DNA of 64,000 nt. Origin: Solirubrobacter phytolaccae. GTDB taxonomy: Bacteria; Actinomycetota; Thermoleophilia; Solirubrobacterales; Solirubrobacteraceae. The notes below the pieces were generated by a model. It ran no database searches, was not told the DNA's origin, and saw only the letters and a program-made list of their open reading frames with translations. The stretch covers positions 1 to 64,000 of the forward strand of contig NZ_JAPDDP010000020.1 in NCBI RefSeq assembly GCF_027587195.1, in the 5' to 3' direction. Each line of letters starts with the position of its first letter. The stretch's first letter is position 1. Both the position numbers and the translations under genes were made by a program. This document shows positions 6,792 through 26,635 of this stretch, piece after piece.

Positions 6792-7187
6792 CTACGTCAG
6801 CGCTTCACGCGCGTTGTAGATGTCGTCCGTGGCGATCACGACGCGGTCGCCGCCGAGCGCCGTGTACGCGAGGTCCACGTTCACGTTGCCTTCGGCGAGC
6901 TGGATCATCACGTCCACCAGCCCACCGGGGCCGACCGGCACCACGAGCACTTCCCGCGTGTCGGCGACCCGCAGGCGCTCCCGTTCGAGCGCCGCGGTGA
7001 CGACCTTCACGTCGTCGTTGTCGACCAGCGCGTGCACGAAGCCGTGCTCGTCGCCGGTGAACGCCGCGATGCCGCGAAGGTGCACGCCGGCCGAGACCGC
7101 GACCTCGGCTACCCGCGCCAAGCCGCCAGGCTCGTCACGCAGCACAACGGTGAGATCGGTCGCGATCACCATCGCGCCGAGCATCAT
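6792..7187 (-). CDS. tandem ACT-domain protein
   Basis: A protein of about 131 residues with two ACT-like repeats. The first begins TDLTVVLRDEPGGLARVAEVA, followed by a strand with GIAAFTGDEHGFVHALV. The second is VVPVGPGGLVDVMIQLAEGNVNVDLAYTA. ACT domains bind amino acids or similar small ligands; no catalytic domain is attached, so a stand-alone sensor or regulatory subunit is likely. The start could be ATG 7187, 7184 or 7172; none has a strong ribosome-binding site. It lies 20 bp upstream of the methyltransferase-GT2 fusion on the same strand. Confidence 0.75.
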   Translation of the reverse strand: MMLGAMVIATDLTVVLRDEPGGLARVAEVAVSAGVHLRGIAAFTGDEHGFVHALVDNDDVKVVTAALERERLRVADTREVLVVPVGPGGLVDVMIQLAEGNVNVDLAYTALGGDRVVIATDDIYNAREALT

Positions 7188-7203
7188 CCCACGCGGAGCA
7201 CCC

Positions 7204-7440
7204 TCATGTCGTATGGACCAGGGTCGACGCCCCATGCTGTTCGCGCACCGCCCGGTACGCGTAGGGGTGATGAAAGACGTCGAGGGCGCGCTCGCCGGGG
7301 AGCACGACCACCTCGAACGCGTCGTCGGTCTTGGCGTCGGCGACCGCCACCGTGACCTGATCGGAGGCCGCGTCCCAGAACATGGTCACGTAGATGCCGT
7401 CGTGGGCGCGGTAGGCGAGCTCGTGCACGGTGGTGGTCAT
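7204..7440 (-). CDS. small conserved protein of unknown function
   Basis: A 78-residue protein starting MTTTVHELAYRAHDGIYVTM. The ATG at 7440 is preceded on the minus strand by GAGGATTCCTCC, giving a purine-rich ribosome-binding site. The pattern of alternating beta-type residues (DQVTVAVADAKTDDAFEVVVLPGERALDVFHHPYAY, shown here only as landmarks around residues 28-63) resembles small single-domain actinobacterial proteins, without a named function. It sits between the ACT gene and the divergent lar genes. A palindrome at 7485-7502 lies just upstream. Confidence 0.7.
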   Translation of the reverse strand: MTTTVHELAYRAHDGIYVTMFWDAASDQVTVAVADAKTDDAFEVVVLPGERALDVFHHPYAYRAVREQHGASTLVHTT

Positions 7441-7484
7441 GGAGGAATCCTCGGGTCGGCGGGTGGTTGGGTGAATCCTCCTCC

Positions 7485-7502
7485 GGGGTGAACGTTCTCC
7501 CC
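7485..7502. promoter_or_regulatory. near-perfect palindrome in the divergent promoter region
   Basis: GGGGTGAACGTTCTCCCC is an inverted repeat with a perfect GAACGTTC core and one mismatched pair. It lies between the minus-strand small gene (start 7440) and larB (start 7588). The form fits a dimeric repressor site. No protein can be assigned. The rest of 7441-7587 shows only repeats of AATCCTC. Confidence 0.35.
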
Positions 7503-7587
7503 ACCGGGCCAGCCCGCCTTCTGTGGCCGTGCAACCCGCCGGTCCCGGTGGGGCCAGCCGTACCCCGCGGATAACCTGCGAGCCCAG

Positions 7588-8256
7588 ATGGACTCTTTTG
7601 CCGACCTCGGGTTCGCGCGGGTGGACACCAGCCGCGAAGCGCGCCAAGGCGCCCCCGAGGCGATCGTGGCCGAGGGCAAGACGCCCGCGGAGATCAGCGC
7701 GATCGCGCAGGCGCTGCTGGACGCCGAGGCGAGCAGCGTGCTCGTGACGCGCGCCGACGCGGCTGCTCGCGCCGCGCTGCGTGAGGTGGCGCCCGACGCG
7801 CAGGAGGACGAGCGGGCGCGGCTCGCGTGGGTCGCTCGCAACGTGCCGGCGCCCGAGGGCGTGGTCGCGATCGTCTCCGGCGGGACGTCGGACCTGCCGG
7901 TCGTGCGCGAGGCGCAGGTGCGGGCGGAGCTGCTCGGGACCGAGGTGCTCGTGCACGTAGACGCAGGGGTGGCCGGGCTGCACCGGCTGGAGCCCGCGCT
8001 GCCGGACCTCAAGCGCGCGCACTGCGTGATCGTCGTGGCCGGGTGGGACGCGGCGCTCGCGTCCGTGGTCGGCGGGATCGTCGCCGCGCCGGTGATCGCG
8101 GTGCCGACGAGCACCGGGTACGGCGCGACGTTCGGCGGTGTGAGCGCGCTGCTGGCCATGCTCACGAGCTGCGCCGCGGGCGTGGCCGTGGTGAACATCG
8201 ACGACGGATTTGGCGCCGGCACGATCGCTGCGCGGATCGCGAGGCAATCGAAGTGA
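7588..8256 (+). CDS. larB: LarB, nickel-pincer cofactor biosynthesis
   Basis: A 222-residue LarB. Known family role: carboxylation of the pyridinium ring of nicotinic acid adenine dinucleotide and release of AMP, the first step to the nickel-pincer nucleotide used by lactate racemase. Visible family features are the N-terminal helical region with the VAEGKTPAEI stretch, VAIVSGGTSDLPVVREA (PurE-like nucleotide fold), HVDAGVAGLHRL, VVAGWDAALASVVGGIV, and TSTGYGATFGG near the C-terminus. Length is usual. Its stop overlaps the larC GTG (GTGA), so the two are coupled. It is the first gene of the larB-larC-larE run. Confidence 0.93.
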   Translation: MDSFADLGFARVDTSREARQGAPEAIVAEGKTPAEISAIAQALLDAEASSVLVTRADAAARAALREVAPDAQEDERARLAWVARNVPAPEGVVAIVSGGTSDLPVVREAQVRAELLGTEVLVHVDAGVAGLHRLEPALPDLKRAHCVIVVAGWDAALASVVGGIVAAPVIAVPTSTGYGATFGGVSALLAMLTSCAAGVAVVNIDDGFGAGTIAARIARQSK

Positions 8257-15917: not shown

Positions 15918-16682
15918 GTGAAGTTCGCCTCTGGCGGGCGTCGGCTGGAGAAGCTCGCCGGTTCGAACAAGGCGGGAAGCCGGGCGCCGTCGGCGCCTTC
16001 CAAGTGGCGCACGGTCTCGGCGGGCAAGGACCCGTGGTCCGAGCGCGGCGTCGAGGACCAGGCCTGGCTGCGTGAGCCGCGCCCGGCGCTGATCCGCGAG
16101 CTCGCCCAGCAGGCGCTGCTCTTCCCGGCCACCCGGGCGGTCGCGATGCCGACCATCATCGGCGCCGAGGACCTCGTCCACGCGCCGCAGCCGGCGATCC
16201 TCGCGCCCAACCACGAGAGCGACATCGACACGCCGCTCGTGCTGCTCGCGCTCCCGCACGCCTGGCGCTCCCGCACCGTCGTCGGCGCGGCGAGCGACCG
16301 CTTCTACCGCAAGCGCGGCTACGCCCTCGCGGCCGGCTTCTGGATCAACACCTTCCCGTTCGACCGCGGCGGCGGCCAGCGCCGCGGCCTCGCCGCGGCG
16401 GCCGCCCACCTGCGCGACGGCCGCAACGTGATGCTCTTCCCCCAGGGCACCCGCGGAGCCGGCCCTGAGGGTTACCGCGCGGGCGTCGCCGAGCTCGCGC
16501 TGACCGCCGGCGTCCCGATCATCCCGATCCACATCGAGGGCACCGCGCTCGTCATGCCCAAGGGCCGCGGCCTGAACCGCCGCGGCAAGACGAAGGTCAC
16601 CTTCGCCCGCCCGCTGCAGCCCCGCCCGGGCGAGACGCCCGATCAGCTCACCGCACGCCTGCAGGACTCGATCGAGCACTAA
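15918..16682 (+). CDS. PlsC-like 1-acyl-glycerol-phosphate acyltransferase
   Basis: A 254-residue acyltransferase with the LPLAT signatures: NHESDID (HxxxxD catalytic motif) near residue 95 and FPQGTRG near 175. IEGTALVMPKGRG follows. It transfers an acyl group from acyl-CoA/ACP to a hydroxyl of a phospholipid-type acceptor at the inner membrane face. It is last in the reductase/HAD-dehydrogenase-LarA-like operon, separated by the repeated element, and its GTG follows GCTCGAGG. This supports a lipid product for the operon. The stop shares the 4-bp CTAA with the convergent lipoprotein gene. Confidence 0.9.
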   Translation: MKFASGGRRLEKLAGSNKAGSRAPSAPSKWRTVSAGKDPWSERGVEDQAWLREPRPALIRELAQQALLFPATRAVAMPTIIGAEDLVHAPQPAILAPNHESDIDTPLVLLALPHAWRSRTVVGAASDRFYRKRGYALAAGFWINTFPFDRGGGQRRGLAAAAAHLRDGRNVMLFPQGTRGAGPEGYRAGVAELALTAGVPIIPIHIEGTALVMPKGRGLNRRGKTKVTFARPLQPRPGETPDQLTARLQDSIEH

Positions 16683-17287
16683 CAGCGGACGAGGGTGACC
16701 ACGTCCCCCGGGTGGAGCTCGACGCGCTTGAGCTCACGCCCCGTGGCATCACGTACGCTCGCGTAATAGACGCGCAGTCGCGTGGTCCCGCGGGCTCGAT
16801 GCCGCCGTGTGCGCGCCTCGGCGACGAAGTACCGCAGGTCGCCCCCGAGCTGCGACGGCGCCTCCATCAACGTCACGCGCGTGGGGAGCGCACCGCCGCG
16901 CCCGGTGACGAGCTTCACGTCGGTCGCGCCGCGGTCCACCGCACCGTACGCGAACGCGCGCCCGGCGCAGACGTCCTCGAAGCTCTCGAACTCCTCGGTC
17001 GGCACCCCGGTCTCGCCACCGGCCGGGCAGACCCGCTCACGCGGCTCGCGCGGCCGGAGGTTGAGGCACTGCTCCCCGCGTCCCTCGCTCGAGAGCCGGA
17101 CACGCAACCGCCAGCGCTCACCCCATTGGAACCGCCCGATCCCGGCAGTGACCCAGTCCGAGGCAGGCGCGGCGACCGGTCGGCCACTGGACTCCGGGCG
17201 AGCGGTGCCGCAGCCGGTGAGGCACAGCACGAATGCCGCGATCACGCCGGCGGCTACGCCGCCCGAAGTCCAGGGCCGGAGGTTCAC
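16679..17287 (-). CDS. lipoprotein coupled to the RHS-protease gene, possible immunity protein
   Basis: A 202-residue lipoprotein. A hydrophobic signal (GVIAAFVLCLTGCGT) ends in a lipobox LTGC, with the modified Cys near residue 26. The mature part is beta-rich with several cysteines and ends VELHPGDVVTLVRC. It starts at ATG 17287, overlapping the stop of the large secreted RHS-type protease gene (ATGA). Coupling of a surface lipoprotein behind a secreted toxin-like protein suggests an inhibitor or immunity role, but this is positional inference only. Confidence 0.75.
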   Translation of the reverse strand: MNLRPWTSGGVAAGVIAAFVLCLTGCGTARPESSGRPVAAPASDWVTAGIGRFQWGERWRLRVRLSSEGRGEQCLNLRPREPRERVCPAGGETGVPTEEFESFEDVCAGRAFAYGAVDRGATDVKLVTGRGGALPTRVTLMEAPSQLGGDLRYFVAEARTRRHRARGTTRLRVYYASVRDATGRELKRVELHPGDVVTLVRC

Positions 17288-20200
17288 TGCGCCGGATACT
17301 GCTTCCGCATGCCGTTCACGTCACCACGGTAGAGCCGCCGCCAACCGGTGGAGTTCTCCCGAGCCACGCCGAACATCGCCTGCAGCGCATCGTCGTCGTG
17401 CGCGAGGCCGATCGAGTGACCGGTCTCGTGGATGGCGACCGCGTACAGGTCGTAGCAATTGGGGCTACCGGCGGCGGTCTTGGTGCAGTTGTCCAGCGGG
17501 TTGATGAACTGGCCCGTGTTGGTTCCGACCGAGCCGAGATAGAGCCTGACCGCCGTGTTGTAGCGCTGATTGGCCTCGTTCATGCGGGTGCCGTTCGCGT
17601 TGAGCGACCGGGCCGTGCAGCCGACCGGCACGGCCATGCCGCCACAGCTGCCCGCGGCCATCTCGGCGAAGTCGACGGTGTTCGCGCAGTTGGTCGCGTT
17701 CGTCCCGTTCGGACAGTTGCGCTGCGTCGCGCTGAACCTCCGGTTGGTGGGGGACGAGTCGTAGATCGCGCGGAAGTTCACCTGGTCACGGAAGCCGCAG
17801 TTGTCCCGCGTGCTGTTCCAGGCCTGGTGACCCTCGATGACCCGCTGACGCGCCCGCACGTGGCCGCCCAGCCCGCTGCGGTTGAAGCGGTAGGTGTATT
17901 CCCGCGCATCCCACTTCGGGTACAGCTCGTAGCTGAGGCGGCTGTTGGCGCCACAGCCACGGGCGTTCTCGTCGATCCCGGCCGGCAGCTCCTCCAGCGA
18001 ACGAGCGGCGGACGCGGCCGGCTCGAAGTCCCCCACCGTGGGCGGCTGAGGCTCCGGGATGCCTTTGCTCCGTGCTTCCGCGAGGCCGGCGGCGAACGCC
18101 GGATCGTCAGGGCTGACCAGCATCGCATCCAATACGAACAGCTGGTCGTAGCGGTCACGGCGAGTGGTCTCCGTCGTGACGTACTCCGTGGTCCCACTGG
18201 GCAGCTCGAACGCTTCCACGCGCTCCGCGTACGTGACCTCGTCGGCCGCGTTGCACTGCGTCACGCGGTACGTGTCGTCCGCGTAGAACAGCGTCCACTG
18301 GGGATTGGCCGACGTCCCGCCGGTCGTGTATCCGACGCCGCCCATCGCCGTCGCGAGCTCCGCGTCGGGCGTGCACGTGTAGACGCTGCGGGCCGCGGGT
18401 GAGTCGTCCGGGTCGGTGGTGTCGGGCTGCCCGTCCGGTACGACGGTGAACGACGTCGTCGCCGTGTTGTTGGCGAAGTCGGTCGCGGTGACCGTCACCG
18501 TCATGCCGCTCGGAGCGACGTAGTTGTCGGGGTTGAACTCGAGCTCCGCGTCGAGCACGCACGAGTCGCCCGGGCACTCGGCCCGGTCGGTCAGCGTGAC
18601 CTGCGAGGTGGGAGCCCCGTTGAGCACCTGTGAGGCACCCGTGAGGTTGATGGCGATCTGCTTGACGCCGGACTGCGGCGCGCTCGAGTTGCCGTCAGTG
18701 GCCATCACGAGCAGGTCCGAGTCGTCCGGCACCGTGTGCGACGTCGTCTGCCCGCGCTCGTACAGCAAGCCGTCGAGCGCGATCACCGGTGGCGTCGTGT
18801 CCGTGCTGGTGCACGAGCAGATCACACGGGTCACGACGCCCGTGCGGTCCGAGCAGTAGGTGTACGTCACGCTGCCGGAGGTCACGGTCGTCTTGGTCGC
18901 GTCGGTCGCCGGGTCGCACGGCGAGCTCGCCGCGGCGTAGGCGAACGTCGTGCTCGTCACGGTGCTCCCGACGGTGCGCTGAGCACTCGTGACGCGGCCC
19001 TGTCCGTCGTAGCCGAACGCCATCGTCGTGCCCGAGGACTCCGCGATCGACGTGAGCGGTCCGCGGAAGCCGTCGTGCGTGTACGTGCTCGTCCGCTCCG
19101 GCGTCTGGACGCTGGTGAGCATCCCTCCGCTGTCATGGTTGTAGTTCACGGTACGCCCGCTCGTCTGGTCGACGATCGTGTCGATCCGGCCCGCCGTGTC
19201 CCGTTCTTGCAGCAGGGTCCGGTTGGCGTCGACGATCGTGCGACGGCGGTTCGCGTCCTCCTGGCCGAACGTCACTGTGCTGGCGCCGCGCACGATGCTC
19301 TGCGTCCGCCAGTGGTACGGATCCGGGAACCCCGTGTACGCGCTCTCGGCGGCGTCGGCGGGCTGCAGGCGGACCGTGTACGAGCCGTCGGGGTTCGCCG
19401 ACAGCGCCGCATGGTTGCTGGCCGGCGTGAAGTAGCCGCCGCCACCGTCCGGATAGAACGTCAGCTCGGCACCGCTCGGGAGCCCGACCTGGATCGAACC
19501 GTCCCAGTCCGGGACGCCCACGTAGAGGCCATCGCCGTGATGGTTCGTCCAGCCCGGGCCGAGCTGGCCCCAGACCCGCCACGTCGCGAACGAGTTGAAC
19601 GTACGCGCCAACCCTTCCTCGAACCCGCTAAAGGGCGCGTCGGTCGCGTCGACGAGCAGGTTGCCGTTGGCCGGGTTCACACGCACCGCGTGCGTCGCGG
19701 TGTCGGGCGCGTCGACCAGCGTGTAGTTCCCGAGCTGGCCGACCGCCGGCATCCAGTCGACATCGATGTACGGCGCCTGCGAGGCGTCACCGTCGCTGGA
19801 GGTGAAGCGGAACTGGCTCTGCGGCGACCCGGTCGGGGTCTGCAGCACGAAGCCGTGGTTCGGAAGCGCTCGAGCCACCCACTTGCGGACGAGCTCGGTC
19901 GGCTCCCACGCGGTCCAGAAGCCCGGCTGCCCGATGGTGCGCACGGGCCCTTCGACGGCGGGGTCGATCGCTCCGGCGGGCCAGGCCGTGCTGCCGTTCG
20001 TCGTGTTCCAGGTCGCGGCGTTCGTCCACGGGACCGTCAGCCGATGCAGCTCGATGCCGGTCGGCGACGTGCTCCCGGTGCTCTGGTTGTGGTAGAGGGC
20101 GAACCAGCCTTCGAGCACCTGCGCGTCCGGCGGGATCGCGTCCTCCACCGCGAACCGGAAGGTGGGCTTGAGCTCACCGCTCGAGGTGCGGCCGACGCGC

Positions 20201-21180
20201 AGGTAGGCAAGGCTGCAGGTGGACGTCGTGGGCGTCGAGCTGTCCAAGAAGCAGTCCTGGTCGGCCTTGGAGAAGCGCAGCAGCCCGTCGACCCAGTAGA
20301 CGTCGGGGTCGAGGGCAACGGGGAACGCGCGTGCCTTGTCGCGCAGCCAGCCCCGGTCCGTGCTGACCGTGAGCGTCCAGGCGGAGCCTGCGCGCGAGAG
20401 CCCGAACGTGGCACGCCCCGTCACGCCCTTGGCGTCGACGATCGTCGGGGCCGCGAAGCCGAAGCGCACGTTGTCGGCGGCATCGACGAACGCGACGCCC
20501 CCGTCGCGGGTGAGCCGGGGCTGGAGGCCACGGCTGGCGTCGACCCGATAGCGGAAGCTGTCCGGCGCCTTCGCGGAAGCCAGCGAGAGCACCTCGCGGA
20601 CACCGGCACCGTGCACCGTGTAGCGCGCGGTCACCTCTTGGGACACGCGATAGGTCGCCGTGTCACCGTCGAGCGTCGGCGCGGCGGTCTCCTCACCCAG
20701 GAGCGCGAAGCTGACCCAGCGACCGTCGGCCTCCACGCGAACGGGAGCGGCCAGCGAGCGCGGCAGGCGCGCGTCGAACGCGTTGGCGGCGTTGCGTGCC
20801 GCGAAGGCGCCGCCGGTGGCCAGCAGCCGGTTGTCGATCGGGCGCCAAGTGGCACCGTCATCGACCGAGAAGTTCAGCGGCTGTTCTGAGACTCGCGTGA
20901 TGAAACGGCCGTCCTGCCCGGCCCGCTGATACGTCCGCGAGAACCGCGTGCGCTCCGACGTGAGCTCGGCGCCTGCAACCGTCGGCGTCGCGTCGCGCGT
21001 GCCCGTCAACGATCCGAGCGGCGTGCCTGCCCGGCTCAGCGCGTCGACGCCGGTGCTCGCGCTCGCCTCGGTCCCGAGCACCAGGCTCGAAAGCACCACA
21101 CATCCAGCGGCGACCACGTGTGATCGCCGAATGGACCCCGTCGAAGCACGCGCCCGCGCACGTGCAGCCAGAGCTGTCAT
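17284..21180 (-). CDS. secreted YD/RHS-type protein with C-terminal metzincin-type protease motif
   Basis: A 1298-residue secreted protein. The signal peptide (residues 20-43, ending ASAST) follows a strong GGGGGAG ribosome-binding site. Next come a beta-rich region, a DNRLRE-like carbohydrate-module stretch (residues 300-450), and a DUF6531-like entry (NLLVDATDAPFSG...LGPGWTNHHG). Short YD/RHS repeats (YNHDSGGMLTSV, YTHDGFRGPLTSI, FGYDGQGRVTSA) lead to an Ig-like segment after DTTPPVIALDG. At residues 1251-1261, HETGHSIGLAH is a complete HExxHxxGxxH zinc site of matrixin type, with a plausible Met-turn (ALQAMF). Architecture resembles polymorphic toxins with a protease tip, but the classical RHS closing motif was not seen. 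Confidence 0.85.
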   Translation of the reverse strand: MTALAARARARASTGSIRRSHVVAAGCVVLSSLVLGTEASASTGVDALSRAGTPLGSLTGTRDATPTVAGAELTSERTRFSRTYQRAGQDGRFITRVSEQPLNFSVDDGATWRPIDNRLLATGGAFAARNAANAFDARLPRSLAAPVRVEADGRWVSFALLGEETAAPTLDGDTATYRVSQEVTARYTVHGAGVREVLSLASAKAPDSFRYRVDASRGLQPRLTRDGGVAFVDAADNVRFGFAAPTIVDAKGVTGRATFGLSRAGSAWTLTVSTDRGWLRDKARAFPVALDPDVYWVDGLLRFSKADQDCFLDSSTPTTSTCSLAYLRVGRTSSGELKPTFRFAVEDAIPPDAQVLEGWFALYHNQSTGSTSPTGIELHRLTVPWTNAATWNTTNGSTAWPAGAIDPAVEGPVRTIGQPGFWTAWEPTELVRKWVARALPNHGFVLQTPTGSPQSQFRFTSSDGDASQAPYIDVDWMPAVGQLGNYTLVDAPDTATHAVRVNPANGNLLVDATDAPFSGFEEGLARTFNSFATWRVWGQLGPGWTNHHGDGLYVGVPDWDGSIQVGLPSGAELTFYPDGGGGYFTPASNHAALSANPDGSYTVRLQPADAAESAYTGFPDPYHWRTQSIVRGASTVTFGQEDANRRRTIVDANRTLLQERDTAGRIDTIVDQTSGRTVNYNHDSGGMLTSVQTPERTSTYTHDGFRGPLTSIAESSGTTMAFGYDGQGRVTSAQRTVGSTVTSTTFAYAAASSPCDPATDATKTTVTSGSVTYTYCSDRTGVVTRVICSCTSTDTTPPVIALDGLLYERGQTTSHTVPDDSDLLVMATDGNSSAPQSGVKQIAINLTGASQVLNGAPTSQVTLTDRAECPGDSCVLDAELEFNPDNYVAPSGMTVTVTATDFANNTATTSFTVVPDGQPDTTDPDDSPAARSVYTCTPDAELATAMGGVGYTTGGTSANPQWTLFYADDTYRVTQCNAADEVTYAERVEAFELPSGTTEYVTTETTRRDRYDQLFVLDAMLVSPDDPAFAAGLAEARSKGIPEPQPPTVGDFEPAASAARSLEELPAGIDENARGCGANSRLSYELYPKWDAREYTYRFNRSGLGGHVRARQRVIEGHQAWNSTRDNCGFRDQVNFRAIYDSSPTNRRFSATQRNCPNGTNATNCANTVDFAEMAAGSCGGMAVPVGCTARSLNANGTRMNEANQRYNTAVRLYLGSVGTNTGQFINPLDNCTKTAAGSPNCYDLYAVAIHETGHSIGLAHDDDALQAMFGVARENSTGWRRLYRGDVNGMRKQYPAQ

Positions 21181-21199
21181 TTCTCCCCCACTCCTAAGC

Positions 21200-21215
21200 G
21201 AGGAGCAATCTCCTC
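21200..21215 (-). promoter_or_regulatory. 5' leader hairpin of the RHS-protease gene
   Basis: GAGGAG-CAAT-CTCCTC is a perfect 6-bp stem with a 4-nt loop, 20 bp upstream of the ATG at 21180 on the minus strand. It would form in the leader RNA near the strong ribosome-binding site. A role in translation control is possible but not shown. Confidence 0.35.
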
Positions 21216-21253
21216 AGCGCCCCCAATGTGACACGTAAAGGCGAGATTCCCCG

Positions 21254-21267
21254 ATCATTTAAATGAT
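21254..21267. promoter_or_regulatory. AT-rich perfect palindrome upstream of the RHS-protease gene
   Basis: ATCATTTAAATGAT is a perfect 14-bp palindrome of nearly pure A/T in a very GC-rich setting. It lies 74 bp upstream of the RHS-protease ATG and 83 bp upstream of the small membrane gene on the other strand. Likely a regulator binding site or promoter core; the protein is unknown. The rest of 21181-21349 shows only the hairpin at 21200-21215. Confidence 0.45.
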
Positions 21268-21349
21268 GCGTAACTAAAGTGACGTGCCGCTCCGGATCAG
21301 TGAGGCGTTAGATTGCGGCCATCCGGGGCACCCACTCGGTGTGTCCCGA

Positions 21350-21631
21350 ATGTCGCAAGTGCTTCTCGCCCTGCTGCTCGCGGTCGGCGCGTTCGTCTTC
21401 TGGCACACGGGCGGCCGCGCCGGCACGCTGTGCGAGCGCGAGCGGTTCGTGCCCGGCGGCGACCTCTCGCTGTGGCCGCCCGGGGCGGCCTGCACCTACG
21501 GCGAGCCCTCGACGACCGACGTCTTCGTCAACCCGTGGTTCCTCGGCACGGTGCTCGTGCTCGGCGTGTTCCTCGCCGTCATTCAGCTCAGCGGCGCCGT
21601 GAAGAACTCCTCCGGGCGCGAGGCGACGTAG
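21350..21631 (+). CDS. small membrane protein, unknown function
   Basis: A 93-residue protein with two hydrophobic segments: MSQVLLALLLAVGAFVFW at the N-terminus and PWFLGTVLVLGVFLAVIQL near residue 65. Between them is a short polar loop with two cysteines (TLCERERF, AACTYGE). The ATG at 21350 is chosen because it sits at the first membrane helix; an in-frame start at 21284 would add a polar tail. The 3' end overlaps the convergent DMP19-like gene by 49 bp. No family is recognised. Confidence 0.6.
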   Translation: MSQVLLALLLAVGAFVFWHTGGRAGTLCERERFVPGGDLSLWPPGAACTYGEPSTTDVFVNPWFLGTVLVLGVFLAVIQLSGAVKNSSGREAT

Positions 21632-22071
21632 CGCTCCAGATCCTCGTCGATCGACGGGAGCGCGTAGAACGCGTCGTCGAGCTCGGTGATGGCCGCCTCG
21701 TCGTCCCCGGTCATCGCGAGCAGCCGCGCGTTGCGCGTCGGCTGCGGCATCGCGACGTCGCCGGCCAGGCCGACCGCGACGAAGCGCTCGAAGAGCTCCG
21801 CGTGCGCGTCGGCGCCGACGAGACGCGCGGCGGCGATCGCCTCCGCGGTGAAGTCGCCGGCCGAGTTGCCCATGCACGAGCAGAACCCGCCGTTGTCGAC
21901 CTCGCCGCAGAACACGAACAGCACGGTCAGCGCGCGCATGCCCGGCGTCAGCTCGTCGAGCCGGTCGTCGAAGCAGCCGACGGCCGCCTCGTGCAGGCGC
22001 TGGAGGCGGTCGAAGCCCTCGAGCCCGGTGACGGACCCGGGCGAGACGCGATGGTCGAGAGCCACGACCAC
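21583..22071 (-). CDS. DMP19/DUF4375-like protein
   Basis: A protein of about 162 residues with the family-like block LFVFCGEVDNGGFCSCMGNSAGDF, here spanning roughly residues 50-73 and distinguished by GEVDNGGF and the following NS. It is helical before and after (AEAIAAARLVGADAHAELFERF). DUF4375 proteins are small and often function as DNA-mimic or interaction proteins; the role here is unknown. The start is uncertain: GTG 22071 gives family-like length, while ATG 22110 would overlap the divergent AKR start codon. Confidence 0.65.
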   Translation of the reverse strand: MVVALDHRVSPGSVTGLEGFDRLQRLHEAAVGCFDDRLDELTPGMRALTVLFVFCGEVDNGGFCSCMGNSAGDFTAEAIAAARLVGADAHAELFERFVAVGLAGDVAMPQPTRNARLLAMTGDDEAAITELDDAFYALPSIDEDLERYVASRPEEFFTAPLS

Positions 22072-22087
22072 GCAAGTGCCCGGCCGG

Positions 22088-22106
22088 GCGGAGGCGTAAG
22101 CTCCGC
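22088..22106 (+). promoter_or_regulatory. hairpin enclosing the ribosome-binding site of the AKR gene
   Basis: GCGGAG and CTCCGC (22088-22093 with 22101-22106) form a perfect 6-bp stem around GCGTAAG. The 5' arm contains the GGAG(G) ribosome-binding sequence for the ATG at 22109. Folding would hide that site, so translation may depend on melting or on a ligand or protein. Confidence 0.4.
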
Positions 22107-22108
22107 GC

Positions 22109-22948
22109 ATGATCGAGCGCGCCCCATTCGGCGCGACCGGACACGAGTCCAGCCGCGTGATCTTCGGTGCCGCGGCGCTTGGCGACGTCTCGAAGGCAGA
22201 CGCCGACGCAGCGCTGCAGCTGCTCCTCGAGCACGGCATCAACCACATCGACGTCGCCGCGAGCTACGGCGACGCGGAGCTGCGGATCGCGACGTGGCTG
22301 AAGGAGCACGAGTTCTTCGTGGCGACGAAGACCGGCGAGCGGACATACGCGAAGGCCCGCGAGGAGATCCGGCGGTCGCTGGACCGGCTCGGCGTCGACC
22401 ATGTGGACTCGATCCAGCTGCACAACCTGTGCGACGTGATCGAGTGGGACATCGCGCTCAGTCCGGGCGGGGCGCTGGAAGCCTGCCTGGAGGCGCGTGA
22501 GGAAGGGCTCGTCGAGCACATCGGCGTGACCGGGCACGGGCTCTCGATCCCGAAGATGCACCTGCGCAGCCTCGAGCGGTTCGACTTCGACTCGGTGCTG
22601 TGCCCGTACAACCACGTGCAGATGCAGGACGAGCGGTACGCGCGCACGTTCGAAGAGCTGGCGGCGCTGTGCGCGACCAAGAACGTCGCGCTGCAGACGA
22701 TCAAGAGCCTCGCCCGCGCGCCGTGGGAGGGTCGCGAGCACACGGCGGCCACGTGGTACGAGCCGCTCACCGAGCAGTCGGCCATCGACACCGCCGTGCA
22801 CTGGGTGCTCGGCAACCCGCAGGTGTTCCTGCTCACCACGGGTGACGTCGGCGTGCTGCCCAAGCTGCTCGACGCGGCCGAGCGCTACAGAGAGCGCCCG
22901 GCCGACGAGGAGCTGGCGGCGCTGGACCTCGCGCCGCTGTTCACCTAG
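22109..22948 (+). CDS. aldo/keto reductase-like oxidoreductase
   Basis: A 279-residue (beta/alpha)8 aldo-keto reductase. The AKR tetrad can be placed in DVAASYGD (Asp, Tyr), FVATKTG (Lys) and IQLHNL (His). The N-terminus [22 protein letters not shown] is typical of AKR proteins that act on sugars, alcohols or aldehydes with NAD(P)H. Neighbours do not identify the substrate. Its stop codon directly abuts the stop of the convergent large secreted protein (TAG then CTA), leaving no intergenic space. Confidence 0.88.
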
Positions 22949-25900
22949 CTACGGCGTCGTACTCGACAACGTGAAGGTGAGCGTCTTGCTGTAGCGGCCC
23001 GTGCGGAGCGGGTCGCGCTCGCCGATCGTCTGCTTGAACTCGACCGGGACCGGCTCGCCGCTGATCGGCGCCGCGAACGTGCGCAGCGTGACCAAGGCGT
23101 CCAGCGGCGCGAACGCGGCCGCGCCGCTGCGGACCTGCAGCGGCTGGGCGAGCGCGAAGCTGCCGTTGACGAGCTTGCCGGTGTCGGTCGCGCTCGGGTC
23201 GGAGACCGTGAGCGTGGCCGCGCCGGCGGTGCTGGTCACCGTCGCCGTGGTGGTGGAGGTGTAGTCGCGATCGACGTTCGGGACGAACGCGCCGAGCGAG
23301 GAGGTGCCGCTGAGCCGGACGGCGAGCGTCGGCGCGACGGTGCCCTCCAGCTCGTGCGTCTCGGTGTCCTCGACGTAGGCGATCGTGAACGTCTTCGAGC
23401 CGACGGGCGAGACGTTGCCGGCGGCGTCGGTCGCGCGGTACTCGACCGTGTGGTCGCCGGTGGCGGTCACGGTGAGCGGAGCGGAATAGGCCGTCCACGC
23501 GCCACCGTCCAGGCGGTACTCGACCGTCACGGCACCGGGCGACTCGTCCTGCGCCGACAGCGTCACCTGGACCGGACCGGTGCCGTCGAGCGTCGCGGAG
23601 ACCGTCGGCGGCGTCGAGTCCACCGGGGTGACCGGGCCGCTCTTGAGGCGGATGTTGCGGTACCAGACGAGCTCGCCGGCACCGTGGTTCTGGATGCCGA
23701 TGAAGCCCTGCGTGAGGTCACGGACCGGGTCGGTGCTGGTGAAGTCGTTGACCAGCACGCCGTTGAGGAACACCTTGATGTTCTGGCCCTGGACCTGGAT
23801 CTCGTACCCGTTCCACTGGCCCAGCGGCTTGAGCGCCTCGACGACCTTGTCGCGGTTCGCGCCCTGGAACGTGTAGATCGAGCCGGTCAGGCGGTCCGGC
23901 ACGTCGGACTCGTCGATCTGGATCTCGTAGCCCTGGTTGATCGCGATGTCGCGGTTGGTGCCCGGGTTCGGGAAGCCGACCCAGATGCCGCCGTTGTCGT
24001 CCTTGATCAGCTTCCAGTCGAGCTTGAGCGTGTAGCTGCCGAACTCCTGCGCCGTGAACCAGTTCATGCCCGAGCCGCCGGCGCTGCGCAGCGAGCAGTC
24101 CTCCTGGCGCCCGAACGAGCCGGGGCCGGCCATGCGCCACTTCGACAGCGACTCGAGCGTGCCGTCGTACAGGGCGACGTAGCCCGGCTCCTGCGTGATC
24201 GGCGCGCAGTGGTCGGCGCCGTTGCCGACCTGGAGCGCGTCGAAGTTCATGCGGCCCTCGTCGCCCGTGTCGTAGCGGACGGCGATCGTGTTGACGCCCT
24301 TGGTGAGCGTGAGGTCACGCGAGAGGAACGTCCAGTTCTTCCAGTCGGTCGTGCCCGGGAACGTCTGCTGGCCGAGCTTGGCGTTGTTGACGTAGATCGA
24401 GACGCGCTTGTTCACCGGCAGGCCCGCGGTCACGCCGCTGGCGTAGCGGAAGCGCACCGGGTAGACGCCGTCCTCGGGGACGGTGACCTGCCAACGGACG
24501 CCGCTGCCGACGGCCGCCAGGTTGTCGGCGAAGCCCGAGCCGGAGTAGCCCGAGTGCTCGGTGTCGTACTGCATGCCGCCGAGCAGCGCGGCCTCCTCGG
24601 CCTCGTAGAAGCCGCTCTCGGCCGGGGTCTTGTAGCCCGGGATCGTGTTGAGCGTGTACCAGGCCTCGGTGTTCCACAGCTCCTGGCCGTTGGCGGCCGA
24701 GAACGGGCGCGGGGAGCGGACGTGCACGACGTGATCGGGGCGCAGTCCGGCGATCTGGAGCGTGACCGACTTGCGGTCGGCGGACGCGGTCGCGCCCGTG
24801 ACCAGGAGCTGCTCCTCGTCGAGCTTCGGGCCGCCGTAGGCCGACGTCGGCACGTAGCGCCACTGCTGCACGCGGTAGCCGTCGGCGAGGTCGGCGACCG
24901 TGTCGTCGGAGAGCGGCTGCGTGTAGGTGATCTTGAAGCCGCCCTCGACGACCTCCATCTTCTCCATGTCGAAGACGTTGGTGCCGTTCGGGGTGAGCTT
25001 CTGCAGGCCGTGGCGCAGCTTGCCCGGCTCCTGCCAGTTGCCGGTCGAGCCGATGCCGCCGACGTAGAGCGCGCCGTCCGGACCGGCGATGATGCGGTTC
25101 ACGCCGGCCTCGAGGCCCGCGGAGTGGCGGAACACGGCGCCCTGGTACTCGCCGCCGACCTTCTCCAGGAACGCGCGCTGGAGGCCGCCGTAGGTGACGT
25201 CGCCGAAGAGCATCTGCCCCTTGAACGGGCCGTCGGAGAGCGTGATCGGCGTGCTCGGCGAGTTCGCGATCTCGTTCTGCGGCAGCCACAGGACCGGCTT
25301 GCTGACCGGCTTGTGGTCGAACGGACCGGCCGGCGTCGTGAAGTGGTTGAAGAACCGGTCCTTCTTGATGTGGACCAGCTTGGAGGCCGGGAGCCAGCCG
25401 CCCTGGTTGTCCATCACGAAGATGTCGTTCTCGGGGCCCCACGTCATGCCGTTCGGCGTGCGCAGGCCGCCCGCGATGTACTCGACCGCGTAGGTCTCAC
25501 GGTCGATCCGCAGGTGCGTGCCGGCGTTGGGGCCGGGCTGCGGGCTCGTCGTCGCGCCGCCCTCGTTGATGGCCACGGAGCGGTTGACGTAGAAGTAGTC
25601 GTCGTCGTGGAGCAGGCCGAAGTTGAACTCGTGGAAGTTGCCGCCGTTGGGCAGCGTCACGAGCGTCCGGCGCTCCATCATGCCGTCGCCGTTCGTGTCG
25701 GCGGACAGCTCGGTGAGCGCGTGCTTCTCGGTCACGTAGAGCTTGTCGCCGATCGCCGCGATGCCCATCGGCACGTTCAGGTTGGTCGCGACCTTCTTGT
25801 ACTCGACCTGGCTCGCGCTCGTGGTGCCGGTGACGTTGGAGACGACGAAGACCTCGCCCGGCTGGACCGACGGGTCGGCACCCGGCCGCGGCGTGCCCGA

Positions 25901-26635
25901 CGTGAGCACGACCATCCGGCCGTCGGCCATGAAGTCCAGCGCCGCGACGCGCGGCTCGAAGCCGGCGGGGCGCAGGTTCGTGAGCGTGTAGTTCGGGTTG
26001 ACCGTCTCCAGGCGCAGGCCGTCGCCGGCCGTGTCGGCGGCGCCCTCGCAGTACTTGTTGCCGGGCGCGACGACGCGCACGACGTCCGCGTCCGTGCTCA
26101 GCACCGACGTCGGGACGACCTCGAAGGTCGACTGTCCGGGGCGCTTCCACTCCAGCTTCAGGACCTGATCGTTGGCGCGGTCGAAGTAGTCGACGTCGAG
26201 CGTGTGCACACCGGCGGTGAGCGTGACCGCGCCGTCCTTCGGCGGGTCGGCGCCGTGCGTGAGGTCGTGGTCGATGACGACGCTGCCGTTGATCTTCAGG
26301 CGCGAGCCGTCATCGCTGCTGAGGCGGAAGGTGTGCTCGCCGGCGGTCGCGACGGTGAGGTTCGCGAAGACATGGGAGAGGAAGTTGTTGCTGGCGCCGA
26401 ACTGGTCGGTCGTCGTCCAGTTGATCGTCGACATCACCTTGTCGACGTTCGGCGTCGTGCCCGCCTTGATCGTGCACAGCTCGTTCGGCGTGCTGCCGAG
26501 CTGGTACGTGCGCAGCGTGACGCCCGGCTGCTGCGGCGGCAGCTGCGCGCTCGCCGAGCCCGTCAGCGCGACGGTCGCTCCGGCGCACACGACCGCAACC
26601 GCGCCCACGCGGCCGCGCCAGTTCCCTCTACCCAC
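22949..26635 (-). CDS. secreted PA14-sugar dehydrogenase-like-DUF1080 multidomain protein
   Basis: A 1228-residue secreted protein. The signal peptide (AVVCAGATVALTGSASA) follows an AAGGAGGAG site and a GTG start. Domains in order: PA14 (about 30-165; HTFRLSSDDGSRLKING, DYFDRANDQVLKLEW), a beta-propeller of glucose/sorbosone-dehydrogenase type (200-540; WGPENDIFVMDNQGGW, FGDVTYGGLQRAFLE), a CBM6-like module (about 690-800, FYEAEEAALLGG), DUF1080/3-ketosaccharide hydrolase-like (820-990; YVALYDGTLESLSKW, GYEIQIDESD), an OmpL47-like beta module (TVEYRLDGGAWTAYSAP), and a final beta domain. It probably binds and degrades or oxidises extracellular glycans. Stops abut the AKR gene. Confidence 0.85.
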   Translation of the reverse strand: MGRGNWRGRVGAVAVVCAGATVALTGSASAQLPPQQPGVTLRTYQLGSTPNELCTIKAGTTPNVDKVMSTINWTTTDQFGASNNFLSHVFANLTVATAGEHTFRLSSDDGSRLKINGSVVIDHDLTHGADPPKDGAVTLTAGVHTLDVDYFDRANDQVLKLEWKRPGQSTFEVVPTSVLSTDADVVRVVAPGNKYCEGAADTAGDGLRLETVNPNYTLTNLRPAGFEPRVAALDFMADGRMVVLTSGTPRPGADPSVQPGEVFVVSNVTGTTSASQVEYKKVATNLNVPMGIAAIGDKLYVTEKHALTELSADTNGDGMMERRTLVTLPNGGNFHEFNFGLLHDDDYFYVNRSVAINEGGATTSPQPGPNAGTHLRIDRETYAVEYIAGGLRTPNGMTWGPENDIFVMDNQGGWLPASKLVHIKKDRFFNHFTTPAGPFDHKPVSKPVLWLPQNEIANSPSTPITLSDGPFKGQMLFGDVTYGGLQRAFLEKVGGEYQGAVFRHSAGLEAGVNRIIAGPDGALYVGGIGSTGNWQEPGKLRHGLQKLTPNGTNVFDMEKMEVVEGGFKITYTQPLSDDTVADLADGYRVQQWRYVPTSAYGGPKLDEEQLLVTGATASADRKSVTLQIAGLRPDHVVHVRSPRPFSAANGQELWNTEAWYTLNTIPGYKTPAESGFYEAEEAALLGGMQYDTEHSGYSGSGFADNLAAVGSGVRWQVTVPEDGVYPVRFRYASGVTAGLPVNKRVSIYVNNAKLGQQTFPGTTDWKNWTFLSRDLTLTKGVNTIAVRYDTGDEGRMNFDALQVGNGADHCAPITQEPGYVALYDGTLESLSKWRMAGPGSFGRQEDCSLRSAGGSGMNWFTAQEFGSYTLKLDWKLIKDDNGGIWVGFPNPGTNRDIAINQGYEIQIDESDVPDRLTGSIYTFQGANRDKVVEALKPLGQWNGYEIQVQGQNIKVFLNGVLVNDFTSTDPVRDLTQGFIGIQNHGAGELVWYRNIRLKSGPVTPVDSTPPTVSATLDGTGPVQVTLSAQDESPGAVTVEYRLDGGAWTAYSAPLTVTATGDHTVEYRATDAAGNVSPVGSKTFTIAYVEDTETHELEGTVAPTLAVRLSGTSSLGAFVPNVDRDYTSTTTATVTSTAGAATLTVSDPSATDTGKLVNGSFALAQPLQVRSGAAAFAPLDALVTLRTFAAPISGEPVPVEFKQTIGERDPLRTGRYSKTLTFTLSSTTP

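What the first reader, a model, noticed from the sequence alone, without database searches (positions are those of the whole stretch)
16679..21180. RHS-type secreted protein with a metzincin tip coupled to a lipoprotein gene
Seen: signal peptide, DNRLRE-like and YD repeats, then an intact HExxHxxGxxH at the very end; the next gene is a lipoprotein with ATGA overlap. Known: polymorphic toxins place a variable toxin at the C-terminus and an immunity protein downstream. Inference: a contact-type protease toxin with a surface inhibitor. It could equally be a self-acting protease.
Basis: partly seen in the sequence, partly recalled or inferred. Interest (0 to 1): 0.62.

Follow-up and report, generated by a model that had tools for sequence, protein, structure and literature searches.

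The report
Surface protease coupled to a lipoprotein
A soil actinobacterium encodes a secreted protein whose tip is a zinc protease, directly joined to a gene for a membrane-anchored lipoprotein that may protect the cell from it; the same protease family is paired with unrelated lipoproteins in other actinobacteria, which suggests an overlooked kind of protease-and-guard pair.

Summary
Gene A (17284-21180, minus, 1298 aa) has a signal peptide, a DNRLRE/CBM96-type domain, a DUF6531-like stretch, about one YD repeat, an Ig-like domain and a complete matrixin (M10) unit with HETGHSIGLAH at 1251-1261. Gene B (16679-17287, minus) is a 202-aa lipoprotein that overlaps A by 4 nt (GTGA, not ATGA).

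A is not a classical Rhs toxin: no Rhs-core domain and far too few YD repeats for a cage. Its front half resembles WapA. In Thermoleophilia this front carries many different tips (trypsin-like, AHH nuclease, DUF6973, full Rhs cores). The A+B pair is absent from six sister species.

The protease, not the scaffold, goes with lipoproteins. A lipobox gene lies directly downstream in 6 of 42 matrixin loci, 0 of 24 scaffold-only loci and 2 of 403 control genes. Three unrelated lipoprotein families recur: B, DUF6281 (a second locus of this genome and all ten matrixin-bearing Streptomyces plasmid records) and a 'GGCW' family. Four further plasmids keep DUF6281 without the protease, as orphan immunity genes do.

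Best reading: an exchangeable extracellular protease tip with a lipoprotein inhibitor/immunity partner. No activity or inhibition was tested.

The parts
17284..21180 (-). Gene A: 1298-aa secreted DNRLRE/DUF6531/YD/Ig/matrixin protein
   Evidence: ORF and translation; domains
21058..21180 (-). Signal peptide of A, residues 1-41, predicted ASA cleavage
   Evidence: Read from the sequence
19759..20259 (-). DNRLRE (CBM96-like) domain, residues 308-474
   Evidence: NF033679, 75.2 bits against cut-off 34
18961..19680 (-). DUF6531-like stretch (501-575) and short YD-repeat region (to residue 740)
   Evidence: PF20148 21.1 bits (sub-threshold), TIGR01643 17.9 bits above cut-off
18385..18801 (-). Ig-like domain, residues about 794-932, shared with the matrixin protein of L053
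   Evidence: BLASTP 794-1295 against L053 424-900; Big_7 near cut-off in L053
17287..18381 (-). Matrixin unit, residues 934-1298: two-Cys pre-catalytic (possible pro-) domain plus catalytic domain
   Evidence: Alignments A1 and A3; PF00413; PDB profile match
17398..17430 (-). Zinc site HETGHSIGLAH, residues 1251-1261
   Evidence: Sequence; HExxHxxG invariant in A3
16679..17287 (-). Gene B: 202-aa lipoprotein (lipobox LTGC), GTG start overlapping A by 4 nt
   Evidence: no Pfam or NCBIfam family; only weak matches in 399 Thermoleophilia genomes

Best explanation
A is a Sec- (or Tat-) exported, WapA-like surface/secreted scaffold that carries a zymogen-type matrixin zinc protease as an exchangeable tip. 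Its DNRLRE/CBM96-type domain probably binds wall or matrix polysaccharide, and its short YD and Ig parts act as a stalk rather than a cage. B, translated from the overlapping downstream gene and tethered to the outer face of the producer's membrane, most likely holds the activated protease in check on self and kin cells (a membrane-bound inhibitor acting as immunity protein), while the protease attacks surface or matrix proteins of neighbours. Shown: domain identities, intact zinc site, lipobox, overlap, accessory distribution, tip diversity on the scaffold, recurrent protease-lipoprotein linkage. Inferred: proteolysis, latency, target, inhibition by B, contact action.
For: Matrixin unit above cut-off, catalytic residues invariant. 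Scaffold proteins with other tips in 63 of 399 Thermoleophilia genomes: trypsin-like, AHH nuclease, DUF6973, Vps62-like, full Rhs core. A+B absent from six congeners while the flanking PlsC and AKR genes stay; in one (G003) the two are 4 bp apart. Lipobox gene directly downstream: 6/42 matrixin loci against 2/403 control genes (P=1.2e-5) and 0/24 scaffold-only loci. This genome has a second DNRLRE-Ig-matrixin gene overlapping a DUF6281 lipoprotein. All 10 Streptomyces plasmid records with this protease carry DUF6281 downstream on the same strand; 4 more carry DUF6281 alone and one of the ten keeps only a protease remnant beside it. G032 has the scaffold with another tip, then a separate M10 gene, then a secreted-protein gene. 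WapA of Streptococcus suis has DNRLRE plus DUF6531 plus Rhs plus toxin with adjacent immunity genes (PMC12704120).
Against: The protease family is mostly stand-alone and often lacks a lipoprotein neighbour; chromosomal Streptomyces-like relatives L234 and L235 lack one. Linkage counts rest on a simple gene caller and include related loci. B has no convincing relatives, so co-evolution with the tip cannot be tested; the best weak match (L183) lies downstream of a gene unrelated to matrixins. AlphaFold models of both proteins failed (pLDDT 28 and 36). No delivery apparatus or target is known.
Confidence: 0.5

Rival explanations
1. A is an ordinary surface-bound or secreted degradative protease (nutrient, matrix or wall turnover, or predation), and B is an accessory lipoprotein such as a foldase, activator or anchor rather than an immunity protein.
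For: Stand-alone secreted matrixins of this family are common in Actinomycetota (51 of 396 genomes), usually with no lipoprotein neighbour. Sister scaffolds carry trypsin-like hydrolases. DNRLRE is related to the alginate-binding module CBM96 found in polysaccharide lyases (PMC9971899).
Against: DUF6281 kept without the protease on four plasmids suggests a use of its own, which an activator or anchor would not have. Different unrelated lipoproteins fill the same position.
Confidence: 0.35
2. B is unrelated to A's function; the overlap is a by-product of compact gene order at a variable insertion site.
For: The PlsC-AKR interval holds different cargo in sister species. B belongs to no known family.
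Against: Lipoprotein adjacency recurs with the protease in separate lineages and exceeds control genes; a second overlapping pair lies elsewhere in the same genome.
Confidence: 0.12
3. A is a true Rhs polymorphic toxin with a caged, self-cleaved tip.
For: DUF6531-like stretch and a YD repeat; a sister protein on the same scaffold has a full Rhs core.
Against: No Rhs-core domain; one YD motif by regular expression; only about 300 residues between the DNRLRE and Ig parts.
Confidence: 0.03

Closest known systems
WapA / Sec-exported Rhs polymorphic toxins of Gram-positive bacteria (S. suis WapA-CT1, PMC12704120; B. subtilis WapA)
   Same: Signal peptide, DNRLRE domain, DUF6531-like stretch, YD repeat, variable C-terminal tip, small gene directly downstream
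   Different: No LysM, no Rhs-core, no cage-length YD array; tip is a matrixin with its own pre-catalytic domain; partner is a lipoprotein
Rhs proteins with metallopeptidase toxin tips (Tox-MPTase1-5 and PVC-metallopeptidase; Zhang et al. 2012, PMC3482391)
   Same: Metallopeptidase at the extreme C-terminus behind YD/RHS sequence
   Different: Those are Wss1-like or PVC-type zincins; none of the passages read describes a matrixin or a lipoprotein partner
Bacterial matrixins (Pfam PF00413, peptidase family M10)
   Same: HExxHxxGxxH, Met-turn, profile match to MMP catalytic domains
   Different: Here fused to a 930-aa scaffold; most relatives are stand-alone proteins with open frames of 250-400 aa
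DUF6281 lipoproteins (PF19797)
   Same: Small lipoprotein encoded directly downstream of a matrixin (this genome's second locus; Streptomyces plasmids)
   Different: B has no DUF6281 similarity (hhalign probability 14%)
CBM96 / DNRLRE domain (PMC9971899)
   Same: DNRLRE model matched at 6e-21
   Different: Ligand binding not tested; the alginate-contact residues were not checked

Membership tests
Matrixin (M10) | HExxHxxGxxH plus Met-turn Met | tested here: met
   Sequence; HExxHxxG and the Met invariant in A3; PF00413 30 bits against 24
Matrixin (M10) | Matrixin catalytic fold | tested here: inconclusive
   Profile matches MMP-8 at 1e-16; AlphaFold model failed, pLDDT 28
Matrixin (M10) | Zinc-dependent proteolysis | not testable with these tools
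   Needs an enzyme assay
Rhs polymorphic toxin | Long YD-repeat shell able to enclose the toxin | tested here: not met
   One YD motif, one match above TIGR01643 cut-off
Rhs polymorphic toxin | Rhs-associated core domain with cleavage site ahead of the tip | tested here: not met
   TIGR03696 absent in A but found in L045
WapA-type polymorphic effector | Signal peptide, DNRLRE and DUF6531/YD in this order | tested here: met
   DUF6531 just below Pfam cut-off
WapA-type polymorphic effector | Same N-terminal scaffold with different C-terminal tips | tested here: met
   Family level only, 26-35% identity; no close orthologue to show a recent swap
Toxin-immunity pair | Tight co-directional downstream partner gene | tested here: met
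   4-nt overlap
Toxin-immunity pair | Partner linked to the tip across lineages | tested here: inconclusive
   Lipoprotein linkage recurs for the protease family, but B itself has no homologue to follow
Toxin-immunity pair | Partner neutralises the toxin | not testable with these tools
   Needs an inhibition or growth assay
DUF6281 | Pfam PF19797 match | tested here: not met
   No match for B; met by the second-locus lipoprotein, 28.3 bits against 28, and by Streptomyces L233, 142 bits
Anti-phage defence gene | PADLOC model match | tested here: not met
   None for A or B

The most novel reading that the evidence does not exclude
Actinomycetota carry an undescribed class of extracellular conflict module: a secreted matrixin protease paired with a lipoprotein inhibitor/immunity protein drawn from unrelated families (B, DUF6281, 'GGCW'). 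It occurs stand-alone on Streptomyces plasmids, where orphan DUF6281 genes persist without the protease, and in Solirubrobacter as the tip of WapA-like scaffolds.
Probability: 0.3. Interest if true: 0.7.

Novelty: new variant of a known kind. Interest (0 to 1): 0.52.

Why it matters
From general knowledge, described immunity proteins mostly protect against nucleases, membrane-damaging and wall-degrading toxins. A membrane-tethered lipoprotein guarding a monoderm cell against its own extracellular protease would be a clear, testable solution to self-damage outside the cell. It would also give a first function to DUF6281, for which no paper was found in the held library.

Tried and rejected
Single-protein genome-contig scan with the tip: no confirmed relative. 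A second scan with alignment A4 found 15 loci, the three closest in Solirubrobacteraceae-type MAGs. Close orthologues in six congeners: none. AlphaFold of the tip (3-row alignment) and of mature B (single sequence): pLDDT 28 and 36, unusable, so no fold search was run. B against DUF6281 and against the GGCW family by profile: unrelated. Weak matches of B in 399 genomes: mostly chance; only L183 looks like a real distant lipoprotein relative, and its upstream gene is not a matrixin. A first downstream-gene count used poor start sites and was replaced. Plasmid tblastn with the window tip and with the second-locus tip: no match.

Full report
What is there. The window lies in contig C82 of a 7.74 Mb genome. 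The closest named relatives of the protease unit are Solirubrobacteraceae MAGs, and genome size and kinship suggest a Solirubrobacter-like species; the genus name is my inference. Gene A runs from 21180 to 17284 on the minus strand (1298 aa) and gene B from 17287 to 16679 (202 aa). They share 4 nt: B's GTG start overlaps A's TGA stop, so the overlap is GTGA and not ATGA. A starts with a plausible ribosome site and a type-I signal peptide. The domain order in A is DNRLRE (308-474), DUF6531-like (501-575), one clear YD repeat (707-740), an Ig-like part (about 794-932) and a matrixin unit (934-1298). B has a lipobox (LTGC, 23-26) and no known family.

The tip is a genuine matrixin by sequence. 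PF00413 scores above its cut-off. A profile of 11 relatives matches MMP-8 catalytic domains at 1e-16. HExxHxxG, the Met-turn Met and a following Asp are invariant. The full-length relatives also share a pre-catalytic stretch (motif near 'ETTxxxxxxYxVxRCD') ahead of the catalytic domain. I read this as a pro-domain, by inference. Most relatives are stand-alone proteins: 24 of 399 Thermoleophilia and 51 of 396 Actinomycetota genomes have one, mostly in open frames of 250-400 aa, and the window's open frame (1309 aa) is the longest.

The scaffold is WapA-like but not an Rhs cage. There is no Rhs-core model or motif and one YD motif in A, while a sister protein (L045) has TIGR03696. S. suis WapA-CT1 has DNRLRE, LysM, DUF6531, Rhs and a toxin, with adjacent immunity genes (PMC12704120). 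DNRLRE is related to the alginate-binding module CBM96 (PMC9971899). In 63 of 399 Thermoleophilia genomes the scaffold profile matches at E of 1e-20 or better. Tips seen behind it include trypsin-like domains (L046, L049; sub-threshold Pfam matches), an Rhs core plus short tail (L045), an AHH nuclease inside L159, DUF6973 in L162 and Vps62-like in L157. No close orthologue exists to show a recent swap.

The pair is accessory. The flanking acyltransferase (PlsC-like) and aldo-keto reductase genes are kept in six congeners (81-98% identity). What lies between them differs: nothing (4 bp) in G003, other genes in G001, G002 and G005; in G004 the two lie on separate contigs. A's tip and B were not found in any congener.

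Lipoprotein linkage follows the protease. With one rule applied to all genes (start within -62 to +72 nt of the stop, coding score, hydrophobic N-terminus, lipobox), a lipobox gene lies directly downstream in 6 of 42 matrixin loci, 2 of 403 control genes and 0 of 24 scaffold-only loci (Fisher P=1.2e-5 for matrixin against controls). A reduced count by lineage, which adds the second locus of this genome that the coding-score cut missed, gives 5 of 38 (P=7e-5). One locus (G086) is counted twice among the 42, and related loci are not independent. Three unrelated lipoprotein families take part: B; DUF6281; and a 'GGCW...CGD' family in four genomes of family f5 (L112, L117, L202, L203; homologous to each other). 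B is unrelated to the other two by profile comparison.

A second copy of the pattern lies in the same genome. On contig C164 a 724-aa DNRLRE-Ig-matrixin protein (L058 4847-7021) is overlapped by a 205-aa DUF6281 lipoprotein gene (6997-7614). A third matrixin (C132, L108) is followed 23 nt later by a secreted protein gene.

Streptomyces plasmids give the clearest linkage. All 10 plasmid records with this protease (9 near full length, one remnant) carry DUF6281 on the same strand within about 1.3 kb downstream. Several S. anulatus records are near-copies, but S. fungicidicus, S. longhuiensis and NBC_00299 are distinct (protease 40-57% identical). Four other plasmids carry DUF6281 and no matching protease (three viewed). 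Keeping the partner without the enzyme, and never the enzyme without the partner, is what orphan immunity genes look like. Against this, chromosomal relatives L234 and L235 from the same genus as NBC_00299 have no such neighbour, so the rule holds for the plasmid set only.

A split arrangement also exists. In G032 contig C200 (L047) a scaffold gene with another tip is followed directly by a separate M10 gene (PF00413, 26 bits against 24) and then by an overlapping secreted-protein gene. The M10 reading frame appears interrupted in that MAG, so this is a lead, not proof.

How it most likely works. Shown: export signal, polysaccharide-binding-type domain, intact protease motif, overlapping lipoprotein gene, accessory distribution, tip diversity, recurrent protease-lipoprotein linkage. 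Inferred: A is displayed or released outside the cell, the protease is activated there and cleaves proteins at or near neighbouring cells, and B sits on the outer face of the membrane and blocks it on self and kin. I give this 0.5. The main rival, at 0.35, is an ordinary surface protease with an accessory lipoprotein.

Known versus new. Metallopeptidase tips behind RHS repeats are known (Tox-MPTase1-5 and PVC types; PMC3482391), and WapA-like exporters are known. A matrixin tip on such a scaffold, and lipoprotein partners including DUF6281, were not described in the passages read; no paper in the held library mentions DUF6281. I file it as a new variant of a known kind.

Noticed in passing
L253, L254, L255, L256, L260 (Streptomyces plasmids): A stand-alone M10 matrixin gene is followed by a DUF6281 lipoprotein gene in every plasmid record that has it; four other plasmids keep DUF6281 alone.
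   Followed up: yes
L058 4847-7614 (same genome, contig C164): Second DNRLRE-Ig-matrixin gene overlapping a DUF6281 lipoprotein gene.
   Followed up: partly
L047 7797-12000 (G032 contig C200): Scaffold gene with a different tip, then a separate M10 gene (frame apparently interrupted in the MAG), then an overlapping secreted-protein gene.
   Followed up: partly
window 16682-22109: The PlsC-AKR interval is a variable cargo site in the genus: nothing in G003, different genes in G001, G002 and G005.
   Followed up: partly
L112, L117, L202, L203: A conserved matrixin plus 'GGCW...CGD' lipoprotein gene pair in two genera of another Thermoleophilia family.
   Followed up: partly
window 21583-22248: DMP19-family protein (PF14300, 66.8 bits) next to the pair, in the same variable interval.
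   Followed up: no
window 22949-26635: Large secreted protein with PA14, CBM35 and 3-keto-disaccharide hydrolase domains; a protein with very similar N-terminal sequence lies in the PlsC-AKR interval of G001 (L071 3163-6822).
   Followed up: no
L159 1596-8552: Same scaffold with Ig-like domains and an internal AHH nuclease, followed 33 nt later by a small membrane protein gene.
   Followed up: no
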